Source of the DNA: an uncultured Veillonellaceae bacterium
Lineage (GTDB): Bacteria > Bacillota > Negativicutes > Selenomonadales > Selenomonadaceae
DNA length: 42,449 nucleotides
Direction of reading: 5' to 3'
Assembly (NCBI GenBank): GCA_945949525.1
Contig: CAMFES010000007.1
Coordinates: 1-42,449 of the forward strand
A program made the translations under genes and the position numbers. Positions 25,067-28,291 of the stretch are shown in pieces; positions within the stretch are counted from its first letter, which is position 1; every line of letters starts with the position of its first letter. The notes beneath the pieces were generated by a model. That model ran no database searches. It saw only the letters and a list, made by a program, of their open reading frames with translations, and was not told where the DNA came from.

Positions 25067-27066
25067 GCTTTGTGCATGTTCTGGATGACAACACCATTAA
25101 TAAGATTGCCGCCGGTGAGGTGGTGGAGCGTCCGGCCTCCGTTATCAAGGAGCTGGTGGAAAATGCCATTGATGCCCACGCTGACCGTATCGAGGTGGAG
25201 ATTGCCGCAGGCGGCACCAGCTTTATGCGGGTGTCGGACAACGGCATCGGCATGAGCCGTCAGGATGCGGAGAAGGCCATTCTCCGCCATGCCACCAGCA
25301 AGATTGTAAAGGTGGATGATTTGCTGACTATCGGTACCCTGGGCTTTCGGGGGGAGGCGCTGCCAAGCATCGCCTCGGTATCTCGCTTTTCACTTACTAC
25401 CCGTCAGGCAGGCTCTGAGCTTGGGACGGAGATTAAAATCAGCGGCGGCAGCCAGCCGGAAATCGGGGAAACAGGCTGCGGCATCGGCACTACCATCAGG
25501 GTGGAGGATTTGTTTTTTAATACTCCCGCCAGAAAAAAGTTTTTAAAAACCAACAATACAGAGGGCGGCAAAATCAATGAGTTTATCATAAAGCTGGCTA
25601 TTTCCAATCCGCAGATTGCCTTTAAGCTGATAAATAATAATAAGCTGGCCGTGTCTACGCCTGGCAATGGAGATTTAAAGGATACCCTGCAAAGTATTTA
25701 TGGCGGTACTGTGGGGAGCGCGCTGCTGCCTTTGGAGTTTGAGGACGAGGATATCAGGCTGACCGGCTTTGTTACCAAGCCCTCCGCTATAAGAAGCAGC
25801 CGCAGCTGGCAGACCTTTATCGTCAACGGCAGAATCATTGCCAACCGCGCTATTGCCAAGGCTATTGACAATGCCTACCATGCCCTGATACCCAAGACCG
25901 GCTATCCGTTGGTGGCACTGAACATTCATGTGCCTCAGAATACGATAGATGTGAATGTGCATCCTCAGAAGAGCGAGATGAAGTTTGAGGATGAGGGCAG
26001 GGTGTTCAAGGCCGTCTACAAGGCTGTGCTGGATGCCATCAGGCCAAAGGATGAGGCACGGCAGCTGGGGAATATGGCAGCCGGGGTGGAAAAGGCGGAG
26101 ATAGACAGGCATGTGGCCCATAGCTGGCAATCCATGCAGGAGAGCTTGCAGAATGAGCCTGAGCAGGCGGCGGGGAAGCCTTATATGGAAAGCCTGCTGG
26201 GGGCAAAAGACGCGGGAAGTGCTTCGTCAGCAGCTGTCAGGTATGTGCCTGTGTATGAGGAACGCAGGCAGGCGGCAATGCACTGGCGGGAGGCATCTGC
26301 TGTGCCTGAGGCTGGTTCAGATGTTGTGTCTGACGCTGTTTCTGGTATTGCGGCTGATGTTGTGACTGGCACTGTTTCTGACGCCGTGCCTGATTCGGCG
26401 CCTGCGTCCATGTCTAAGCCTACGTCTATGTCCATGTCCATGTCTAAGCCTACGTCTATGTCTGTACCTGTGGAAAGCGGCGGAGCCGGGGTATGTCCGA
26501 TGGTGCCTATCGGGCAGGTGGACAATACATATATTATTGCTCAGGACGCGGATGGATTGTATATTGTTGACCAGCATGCCGCCCATGAGCGCATTTTGTT
26601 TGACAGGTTTTCAGCCCGGGCGGGGGATATTCCCGTTCAGCAGCTTTTGGTGCATCTGATGCTGGATTTTAGCAGTCATGAGGCGGAGATTATCGAGGCA
26701 AATCTGCCTATGCTGAAAGAGCTTGGATTTGGGCTGGAGCCTGCGGGGCCGAAGCAGTTCCGGCTGACCGAAGTGCCTGCGGATGTGCCATCCGGGGAAG
26801 CGGAGGATTTCATTCGGGAAATTCTGGCGGCGCTGGAGGAGCTGCATAAGCCATCAGCGGCAGAGCTTCGTCAGGCGGCCATTGCCACTGCCTCCTGCAA
26901 GGCGGCCATCAAGGCCGGCTTCAAGCTGAATTTCCGGCAGATGGAGATTTTGCTGACGGAGCTGAACGATACGGCAATGCCCTATACCTGCCCTCATGGA
27001 AGGCCGACAATTATCAAATTCAGCACCGATGAGCTGGCCAAGATGTTTAAGAGGACAGGATTTTGA
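25063..27066 (+). CDS. mutL: DNA mismatch repair protein MutL (endonuclease type)
   Basis: 667 residues. The GHKL ATPase domain spans about 1-330 (IAAGEVVERPASVIKELVENAIDA start, with the ATP-lid block GFRGEALPSIASV). A long low-complexity linker runs from about 340 to 480, with Ser/Met/Pro/Thr repeats. The C-terminal dimerisation/endonuclease domain carries VDQHAAHERILFDRF, ASCKAAIKAG and CPHGRPTI, as in nicking MutL of bacteria lacking MutH. The metal motif DQHA-x2-E-x4-E has Asp instead of Glu at its last position. ATG 25063 overlaps the mutS stop (ATGA). A perfect in-frame 24-bp duplication lies in the linker. Confidence 0.96.
   Translation: MSFVHVLDDNTINKIAAGEVVERPASVIKELVENAIDAHADRIEVEIAAGGTSFMRVSDNGIGMSRQDAEKAILRHATSKIVKVDDLLTIGTLGFRGEALPSIASVSRFSLTTRQAGSELGTEIKISGGSQPEIGETGCGIGTTIRVEDLFFNTPARKKFLKTNNTEGGKINEFIIKLAISNPQIAFKLINNNKLAVSTPGNGDLKDTLQSIYGGTVGSALLPLEFEDEDIRLTGFVTKPSAIRSSRSWQTFIVNGRIIANRAIAKAIDNAYHALIPKTGYPLVALNIHVPQNTIDVNVHPQKSEMKFEDEGRVFKAVYKAVLDAIRPKDEARQLGNMAAGVEKAEIDRHVAHSWQSMQESLQNEPEQAAGKPYMESLLGAKDAGSASSAAVRYVPVYEERRQAAMHWREASAVPEAGSDVVSDAVSGIAADVVTGTVSDAVPDSAPASMSKPTSMSMSMSKPTSMSVPVESGGAGVCPMVPIGQVDNTYIIAQDADGLYIVDQHAAHERILFDRFSARAGDIPVQQLLVHLMLDFSSHEAEIIEANLPMLKELGFGLEPAGPKQFRLTEVPADVPSGEAEDFIREILAALEELHKPSAAELRQAAIATASCKAAIKAGFKLNFRQMEILLTELNDTAMPYTCPHGRPTIIKFSTDELAKMFKRTGF
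26407..26460 (+). repeat. In-frame duplicated 24-bp unit inside mutL
   Basis: A 24-bp unit at 26407-26430 (begins TCCATGTCTAAG, ends ACGTCTATG) recurs identically at 26437-26460, separated by TCCATG (26431-26436). It encodes SMSKPTSM twice. All lengths are multiples of three, so gain or loss of a copy would keep the mutL frame. Confidence 0.95.
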
Positions 27067-27114
27067 ATATCGCACAATAATATCGCGTAATAATATCGCG
27101 TAATAATATCGCGA
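27065..27114 (+). repeat. Three 13-bp tandem repeats plus a partial copy
   Basis: AATAATATCGCGT at 27076-27088 and again at 27089-27101, then AATAATATCGCGA at 27102-27114. A degenerate partial copy (GAATATCGCAC, 27065-27075) overlaps the mutL stop codon. The repeats run directly into the base of the structured element that starts at 27113. Each copy contains a TAATAT box. Confidence 0.93.
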
Positions 27115-27418
27115 ACGGCATGGCAGTACCATTCTTGGGCACGCTCGCGCTATTAGGTGCAGTGCAGTCCAATGGTCTATGTGCTACTTTCGGTCTAAAT
27201 CCCCATCTACGTTGTTGCCGTCGGTCGGCATGGAACCACCATGCCTTCCTCCGGCGCCTAGCAGCTAGGGATTTATCCTCGAAATTAACACATGACCACA
27301 GGACTGCACTGCACCACACGCCTAGCGGTACTAAACTCACACTGCGCCTGTGGCTTGTGTATCGTTAAGTACCGAGGCGCGTCTCAGTGCCCTATGAATG
27401 GTACATGCCATGCCGTTC
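27113..27418 (+). ncRNA. Large structured element, probable novel RNA
   Basis: No convincing gene lies in this gap, and the sequence folds by hand into a long multi-branched structure. Closing helix: GAACGGCATGGCA (27113-27125) with TGCCATGCCGTTC (27406-27418), then TACCATTC (27127-27134) with GAATGGTA (27396-27403), GGGCAC (27137-27142) with GTGCCC (27387-27392), and CGCGC (27146-27150) with GCGCG (27377-27381). Arm 1: GGTGCAGTGCAGTCC (27156-27170) with GGACTGCACTGCACC (27301-27315), GGTC with GACC, ATGTG with CACAT, TTTCG with CGAAA, AAATCCC (27197-27203) with GGGATTT (27268-27274), and an inner hairpin GGCATGG-AACCA-CCATGCC (27227-27245). Arm 2: CGGTACT (27326-27332) with AGTACCG (27368-27374). 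Internal loops and bulges suggest RNA rather than a simple DNA palindrome. Strand and function are not established; a mobile or DNA-hairpin element is the alternative. No T-tract follows on either side. Confidence 0.7.
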
Positions 27419-27443
27419 TTCGTTCCTGCTGAAATGTACATAA

Positions 27444-27473
27444 TTGTCATACTGTCTTTCGTTACTGTTAAAA
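27444..27473 (+). promoter_or_regulatory. Possible promoter for the methyltransferase gene
   Basis: TTGTCA at 27444-27449, an 18-base spacer and TTAAAA at 27468-27473, in an AT-rich stretch 39 bases before the GTG start. A weak match. Confidence 0.35.
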
Positions 27474-27511
27474 ATGTTCGATAAATAAATTTAGTCTGGT
27501 GGTGAAGTTTT

Positions 27512-28291
27512 GTGGTTGCAGTAGTGACTACAGATAGAAAATGTCATAGGGAGAGCCTTGAGCTGGCGGCTGAGATGGCGGAAAGGCTGGGGCTGCAGCT
27601 GGTGCCACGGCAGAAGGAGTCGGTGGCGGAGCTGATGGAGCGCTATCAGGCTGATGCGGTGCTGGTGGCTTTGCAGAAGGAGCTGCGCCTGCATACGGAG
27701 GCAGGGGAGCTGTTTTTTCATCCCAATATGTCACAGCTCCGGCTGAAAAACCTGCGGCTGGGGGACAAGGATCACATGACGGAGGCTATGGGCTTGCGGG
27801 AGGGGATGTCAGTGCTGGACTGCACCCTGGGCTTTGGTGCGGATGCCATAGTGGCCAGCTTTGGCGTAGGAGAAAGTGGCAGTGTTACGGGACTGGAGGT
27901 CAGTCCCCTGCTTGCGGCAGTGACAGGCTACGGCCTGCAGCATTTTCTGCCGGGCAACTATCCTTTGTATGCCGCCATGCGGCGCATCAACGTGGTAAAT
28001 GAGGATTATCTGAGCTATCTTCGCCAGCAGCCGGACAACTCCGTGGATGTGGTGTATTTTGACCCCATGTTCAGAAAGCCCCTGACTGCCAGCAGCAGTA
28101 TTTCGCCCCTGCGGGGGGTGGCTGACCACCGTCCCTTGTCGGAGGAAGCCGTAGCGGAGGCCTGCCGTGTGGCAAGGTCGCGTGTGGTTATGAAGGAAGC
28201 CAGCGGCAGCGGTGAATTTGCCCGCCTGGGCTTCAGCAGATTGGTGGGCGGCAGGTATTCCAAGGTGCATTACGGTGTGCTGGAGCTGTAA
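27512..28291 (+). CDS. RsmJ-like class I SAM-dependent methyltransferase
   Basis: 259-residue Rossmann-fold methyltransferase. The SAM-binding motif I is LDCTLGFGADAIVASFG (about residues 100-116). The catalytic motif DVVYFDPMFRKPL near 184-196 resembles the DPMFP motif of the 16S rRNA guanine methyltransferase RsmJ (DUF548). Substrate is therefore probably a guanine in rRNA or another RNA, an inference from motif IV. The start is a GTG at 27512 with GGTGG about 8 bases upstream. It directly follows the large structured element with only about 90 bases between. A strong promoter for the next gene begins 50 bases after its stop. Confidence 0.8.
   Translation: MVAVVTTDRKCHRESLELAAEMAERLGLQLVPRQKESVAELMERYQADAVLVALQKELRLHTEAGELFFHPNMSQLRLKNLRLGDKDHMTEAMGLREGMSVLDCTLGFGADAIVASFGVGESGSVTGLEVSPLLAAVTGYGLQHFLPGNYPLYAAMRRINVVNEDYLSYLRQQPDNSVDVVYFDPMFRKPLTASSSISPLRGVADHRPLSEEAVAEACRVARSRVVMKEASGSGEFARLGFSRLVGGRYSKVHYGVLEL

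What the first reader, a model, noticed from the sequence alone, without database searches (positions are those of the whole stretch)
27113..27418. Large, ornately paired element of ~306 nt with no recognised family
Seen directly: the first and last segments are complementary over about 21 bp with one small asymmetric bulge, and pairing continues inward through GGGCAC/GTGCCC and CGCGC/GCGCG. It then splits into a long arm closed by a perfect 15-bp helix (27156-27170 with 27301-27315) with at least four further helices and a terminal 7-bp hairpin, plus a second arm closed by CGGTACT/AGTACCG. Internal loops are unequal on the two sides, as in structured RNAs. No convincing coding gene lies in it. 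I do not see the conserved cores of RNase P RNA, tmRNA, SRP RNA or 6S RNA. It sits between mutL and an RsmJ-like methyltransferase. It could be a novel non-coding RNA, a long 5' leader, or a mobile hairpin element.
Basis: partly seen in the sequence, partly recalled or inferred. Interest (0 to 1): 0.88.

Follow-up and report, generated by a model that had tools for sequence, protein, structure and literature searches.

The report
Nested folding repeats between bacterial genes
The folded stretch between mutL and a methyltransferase gene is real: it is one copy of a family of large, mix-and-match hairpin repeats scattered between genes in a family of gut bacteria, and this copy carries a second hairpin repeat inside it.

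Summary
The fold is real (z -14.9 plus strand, -20.1 minus strand) and matches no Rfam family. It is not a single-copy RNA but two modules. OUTER (27113-27155 + 27317-27418) also sits between mutL and the methyltransferase gene in two related genomes; INNER (27156-27316) is only here, and both relatives show the site without it. The family is dispersed: 45 matches in this genome; a model of its core hairpin matches 50 of 151 Selenomonadaceae genomes, in 10 of 30 genera. Helices covary (16 of 26 pairs), outer stems differ by locus yet mostly pair with their own partner, and the minus strand folds better in 49 of 53 OUTER and 22 of 22 INNER copies. Orthologous copies are 94-99% identical, mostly above nearby genes. 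No mobilising enzyme (only Y1/RAYT types were sought), target duplication or transcript evidence was found. Best reading: a modular, strand-specific palindromic repeat family that spread as non-autonomous mobile DNA and is now constrained. It works like REP or MITE repeats but is not shown to be either.

The parts
27113..27418 (-). whole composite element; minus strand is the better-folding one
   Evidence: z -14.9 plus, -20.1 minus, -12.3 plus as DNA
27113..27155 (-). OUTER module, one side: locus-specific outer stem, clamp and conserved unpaired motif
27317..27418 (-). OUTER module, other side: core hairpin, clamp and outer stem
27156..27316 (-). INNER module: nested palindrome closed by a perfect 15-bp helix; the two relatives have TC in its place
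27319..27379 (-). core hairpin (second arm), shared by the family; helices covary
   Evidence: model R1
27141..27151 (-). conserved motif ACGCTCGCGCT on plus (AGCGCGAGCGT on minus), beside the junction where INNER sits
   Evidence: alignments A1 and A2
27113..27134 (.). 5' half of the locus-specific outer stem; 3' half is 27396-27418
27396..27418 (.). 3' half of the locus-specific outer stem

Best explanation
It is a composite copy of a modular palindromic repeat family of Selenomonadaceae. SHOWN: many dispersed copies; a shared core hairpin whose helices covary; outer stems that differ by locus yet stay self-complementary; a nested module absent from the same site in two relatives; better folding of one strand (window minus) whatever the direction of the neighbouring genes; orthologous copies more conserved than most of their surroundings. 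INFERRED: copies spread as non-autonomous mobile DNA, with the folded minus strand (single-stranded DNA or its RNA) as the recognised form, and the junction beside AGCGCGAGCG is a preferred landing place for further hairpin modules. INFERRED: fixed copies are kept by selection as intergenic structures, perhaps as gene-end boundaries. The enzyme that moves them is unknown.
For: 45 matches in the own genome; 50 of 151 family genomes, all 16 of the genus. INNER absent at the same site in G001 and G014 and an INNER module absent at L014's site in G014. No element or only a remnant in at least one relative at 9 of 12 sites read in full. Covariation: 82 two-sided cells against 23.6 in shuffles, 98.2% of cells paired against 20.6-44.1% when slid. 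Own-partner pairing of outer stems: mean 29.9 against 16.4, best of all in 14 of 25 groups. Strand. Conservation. At L017 one relative keeps a ~20-nt local hairpin sequence and the other its inverse, while the element here is flanked by both.
Against: No autonomous partner, direct target duplication or new insertion was seen. Relatives lacking a copy may have lost it by deletion; polarity is not proved. The long form's positions are mostly shared with G014, so recent movement is not evident. A first crude count showed no strand bias (186 G.T, 203 A.C in 27 copies); distant copies have too few G.U/A.C mismatches (2 and 1) to test it; full long elements fold nearly equally on both strands. 11 of 25 outer-stem groups do not beat every cross-pairing. 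One shuffle measure (further pair types, 30 against 27.9, 93 of 500) is not exceptional. Only Y1/RAYT enzymes were sought, no DDE transposases.
Confidence: 0.5

Rival explanations
1. A multi-copy structured non-coding RNA made from the minus strand, for example a protein-binding or sponge RNA; the copies are RNA genes that also happen to disperse.
For: Minus strand folds best and prefers G.U over A.C; covariation; orthologous copies strongly conserved; paired positions change less than unpaired ones (13 of 28 changed bases are unpaired, though only 18-26% of positions are).
Against: No conserved promoter or terminator: flanks vary between copies and the scan of the window gives near-chance numbers. 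Single-stranded DNA would show the same mismatch preference. No RNA data were available.
Confidence: 0.18
2. Cis-acting gene-end structure (terminator, mRNA stabiliser or boundary) that is recruited from dispersed repeats, as described for REPs.
For: At L010 and, on the side that could be aligned, L006, both relatives have a plain terminator-like hairpin where this genome has the element; several long copies start just after a stop codon; in distant genera several copies follow a terminator hairpin and T run.
Against: Orientation to genes is mixed and 5 of 33 copies lie between divergent genes; no T run follows the outer stem here.
Confidence: 0.2
3. Selfish repeat without function; arms are kept complementary by self-templated repair of palindromes, and outer stems arise by copying neighbouring DNA.
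For: Two-sided changes with few intermediates on the plus-strand alignment; locus-specific stems; the inverted flank pair at L017; many gains or losses between relatives.
Against: Orthologous copies are 94-99% identical, mostly above nearby genes, and unpaired parts of the core are conserved too. It does not predict a strand preference. Yet between orthologues only one two-sided change was seen against 7 broken pairs.
Confidence: 0.12

Closest known systems
REP / BIME repeats mobilised by RAYT (HUH tyrosine) transposases
   Same: Dispersed intergenic palindromes, tandem and inverted arrays, strand-specific folding expected; passages of PMC3733652 describe GTAG- and CGTC-tagged REPs and RAYT action on single-stranded REP DNA.
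   Different: REPs are 20-40 bp (that paper); here 145 to about 1000 bp, multi-armed and nested. No RAYT in 16 of 17 genomes searched; the one RAYT has its own GTAG repeats.
MITEs (miniature inverted-repeat transposable elements)
   Same: Non-coding, dispersed; the long form has inverted ends TTTCAGTTTGTCGTAGTG.
   Different: No parent transposase and no locus-varying direct target duplication seen in 18 long copies; structure is kept along the whole length.
PATEs / IS200-IS605-derived palindromic elements
   Same: Palindrome-bearing short elements; distant units begin at T-rich TTTTAC sites.
   Different: Recalled resemblance; PMC3119063 was seen only as a search listing. No link to Y1 transposase genes beyond one core hit about 1 kb from one.
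Repetitive hairpin-forming and double-hairpin elements of mitochondrial genomes
   Same: Proliferating hairpin elements, double hairpins formed by insertion of one beside another (passages of PMC2800124).
   Different: Mitochondrial, shorter; no conserved junction motif or strand bias was looked up for them.
Integron attC sites
   Same: Structure rather than sequence kept, one strand used (recalled).
   Different: Dispersed singly, not cassette arrays; core boxes and integrase not searched.

Membership tests
Known Rfam RNA family | match at or above gathering score | tested here: not met
   window: 0 matches; 26950-27550 permissive: one chance-level hit, E 3.4; 16 loci with family members: only glmS, RAGATH-18 and a group II intron fragment elsewhere in them
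REP/RAYT system | a RAYT gene flanked by the repeats, in genomes that carry them | tested here: not met
   RAYT query found only its own genome among 17
REP/RAYT system | GTAG tag at the foot of the hairpin | tested here: not met
   by reading alignments A1 and A2
MITE | terminal inverted repeats | tested here: met
   long form: 18 copies with inverted TTTCAG...CTGAAA ends; the window copy is not in the long form
MITE | direct target-site duplication | tested here: inconclusive
   flanks are A-rich and T-rich (AAA before, TTT after), no locus-specific direct repeat; no clean empty site found
MITE | parent transposase with the same ends | tested here: inconclusive
   only Y1 and RAYT types were searched; ORFs between inverted ends not identified
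Structured non-coding RNA | covarying helices | tested here: met
   (with the caution that related rows inflate it and that DNA-level palindrome repair could give the same)
Structured non-coding RNA | transcript | not testable with these tools
   no expression data
attC site | core boxes and integron integrase | not tested
   -

The most novel reading that the evidence does not exclude
A class of genetic element defined by a folded strand rather than a sequence: hairpin modules that land in a reserved junction of other hairpins, take an inverted copy of neighbouring DNA as a private outer stem, and are then held by selection at each locus, with an unknown enzyme or host protein reading the minus strand as RNA or single-stranded DNA.
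Probability: 0.2. Interest if true: 0.85.

Novelty: new variant of a known kind. Interest (0 to 1): 0.6.

Why it matters
A repeat family with covariation like that of true structured RNAs, yet built from interchangeable nested modules, tests the common claim that covariation proves an RNA. Conservation above neighbouring genes suggests that palindromic 'junk' can be kept by selection. The filled and unfilled sites in three close species give a direct way to ask how long palindromes are born, grow and are lost in bacterial chromosomes.

Tried and rejected
Known RNA family: no match. Protein gene: no Pfam match for the two ORFs; frame open in the window and L002, broken in L031. RAYT/IS200 mobilisation: not supported. 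Transposon between inverted copies: the ORFs between two inverted long copies in L187 do not look like a transposase by reading, and L191 holds ATP synthase genes by reading. Phages and plasmids: no match to the 331-base query at that sensitivity; one pattern in viral contigs, 0 hits. Direct target duplications and empty sites of the long form: not seen. Extension of inverted repeats through 27 copies was too noisy and showed no strand bias. A group II intron fragment beside L005 was found in 1 of the 10 loci and seems incidental.

Papers: listings showed no paper on such repeats in Anaerovibrio, Selenomonas or Negativicutes (titles and abstract starts only; 12 of 574 listed, 20 of 43). Passages were read in PMC3733652 and PMC2800124. 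The library lacks most subscription journals, so a printed description elsewhere is possible.

Full report
Observation. The pairing described is in the sequence at the stated place. The plus strand folds at -167.7 kcal/mol, 0 of 100 shuffles as low, z -14.9; the minus strand at -192.6, z -20.1. No Rfam family matches the window; the permissive search of 26950-27550 gave one hit at E 3.4.

A repeat with two modules. In the window's own genome 45 matches were found (46 candidates, 40 scored). They fall into an OUTER part (27113-27155 and 27317-27418) and an INNER part (27156-27316) that occur in different combinations. In G001 and G014 the same mutL-methyltransferase gap holds OUTER alone, with TC where the window has INNER. 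In 12 other genomes of the genus with the methyltransferase gene (13 gene copies) I saw no copy in the 520 bases before it; one of the 16 genomes had no match to the gene. An inner module is also absent from the site of L014 in G014, and L011's site in G014 holds a smaller form. In L014 the inner module is inverted relative to its host.

Sites in relatives. Flanks of 18 own-genome copies were searched; 16 sites were fetched in G001 and 15 in G014; all were compared by BLAST and 12 were read in full. At 9 of these 12 at least one relative has no element or only a remnant: L006, L010, L011, L012, L014, L017, L020, L026, L027. L017 and L026 look like remnants; L027 was not seen in G014; L006 aligned on one side only. 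L002 has other, smaller hairpins in the relatives; L005 and L030 have elements in all three. At L010 and L006 both relatives have a terminator-like hairpin instead, by reading. At L017 one relative keeps a ~20-nt hairpin sequence and the other its inverse, and the element here is flanked by both as an inverted pair: either the outer stem was copied from local DNA, or both relatives are deletion products.

Covariation. In 29 OUTER copies 12 of 27 predicted pairs have two-sided changes. In 21 minus-strand core sequences from 8 genomes, 16 of 26 pairs do: 82 two-sided cells against 23.6 in shuffles (0 of 500 as high), 98.2% of cells paired, slid controls 20.6-44.1%; further pair types (30 against 27.9) are not exceptional. 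On that strand I count 17 G.U and 3 A.C cells. Outer stems: 25 groups from 47 copies score 29.9 on average with their own partner and 16.4 with others; the own partner is best in 14 of 25. L043 and L049 show no own stem, and L040 joins the left flank of L039/L044 to the right flank of L033, so it looks recombinant.

Which strand. With wobble pairs forbidden in the fold, single mismatches inside helices of the minus strand are G.T 47 and A.C 9 in 53 OUTER copies (distinct contexts 17 and 8), 16 and 5 in 22 INNER copies (13 and 5); T.T (OUTER) and G.A (INNER) mismatches recur. The minus strand has the lower energy in 49 of 53 OUTER and 22 of 22 INNER copies with RNA parameters, 53 of 53 and 22 of 22 with DNA parameters. 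Its z is lower in 43 of 53; medians -7.7 and -6.5, some copies near zero. In 30 distant copies the corresponding strand is lower in energy in 28, but G.U and A.C counts there (2 and 1) tell nothing. An earlier crude count showed no bias (186 and 203 in 27 copies). Orientation to flanking genes is mixed, so the preference belongs to the element. Single-stranded DNA and RNA would both favour G.T and G.A over A.C and T.C (general knowledge), so this does not say which is folded.

Spread. A covariance model of the core matches 50 of 151 Selenomonadaceae genomes in 10 of 30 genera and all 16 genomes of the genus; at most 25 candidates per genome were scored. Distant genera carry a simpler unit, TTTACTATGAAATCTTAGCGAG...GTGTAAGGGCG plus a second hairpin, singly or in tandem, in several cases just after a terminator-like hairpin and T run. 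In the window's group many copies sit in a longer palindrome bounded by TTTCAGTTTGTCGTAGTG and its inverse: 49, 84 and 64 ends in G000, G001 and G014 with up to 2 mismatches, controls 0, 0 and 2. The 18 such stretches fetched from G001 are 803 to 2916 bases long; the 13 shorter than 1100 bases fold at -375 to -489 kcal/mol against means of -222 to -297 in 8 shuffles each, nearly equal on both strands. Flanks are A-rich and T-rich without a locus-specific direct repeat. Most of 14 such sites are shared with G014.

Constraint. At the mutL site OUTER is identical at 142 of 145 bases with G001 and 143 of 145 with G014; the mutL end is 82.2% and 81.0% and the methyltransferase gene 89.1% and 87.3% identical; the 93-base leader behind the element is also high, 94.6% and 95.7%. 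In seven further orthologous comparisons the element is 134/141, 138/140, 146/153, 143/152, 151/152, 135/141 and 141/147 identical; the next 60 bases are often far less so (L020: 16 of 38 and 29 of 60; L026: 9 of 15 and 38 of 60), but at L011 they are nearly as conserved (59 of 60, 47 of 50). Flank blocks 150-500 bases away with at least 250 aligned bases are 79-92% identical. Over six pairs 28 bases changed: 13 unpaired (18-26% of positions are unpaired), 5 one-sided changes that keep a pair, 1 two-sided pair change, 7 broken pairs. I read this as purifying selection; gene conversion between copies is less likely because the private outer stems are conserved too, but it is not excluded.

Mobilising enzyme. 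Y1 transposase genes exist, but only 1 of 19 such loci holds a core hit (L178 in G068, 32 bits, about 1 kb from the gene), and BLAST found no family DNA in the 12 loci of the three focal genomes. A RAYT query found only its own genome among 17, and that gene has its own GTAG repeats. DDE transposases and reverse transcriptases were not searched. The means of spread is unknown.

Verdict. Real, not a known RNA, not a single gene: a modular, nested, strand-specific palindromic repeat family. Structure, covariation, strand preference, nesting and conservation are shown; mobility and function are inferred.

Noticed in passing
window 27066-27113: Three copies of a 13-base repeat (AATATCGCGTAAT type) between the mutL stop and the element; the number of units differs in the two relatives.
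   Followed up: partly
L005:1830-1991 (minus): Rfam group-II-D1D4-3 match, 45.1 bits: 5' fragment of a group II intron next to an element copy in the window's genome.
   Followed up: partly
L179:1126-1761: RAYT-like gene in G024 (NF047646, 74.4 bits, cut-off 80) with its own array of GTAG-type REPs, unrelated to this family.
   Followed up: yes
L040 (G007): An element copy whose left flank equals that of L039/L044 and right flank that of L033, as if chromosomes recombined at the repeat.
   Followed up: no
L162, L153, L160: Tandem arrays of a ~94-base hairpin unit in G056, the last unit with a different second hairpin.
   Followed up: no
L187:1473-1832: Short ORF between two inverted long copies; it looks like a fragment of a larger gene (reading only).
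   Followed up: no
L024, second module after the element: A separate palindrome (GCTGACGAAACCTGTAA...CGTCAGC) sits between two inverted long copies, giving BIME-like arrays.
   Followed up: partly
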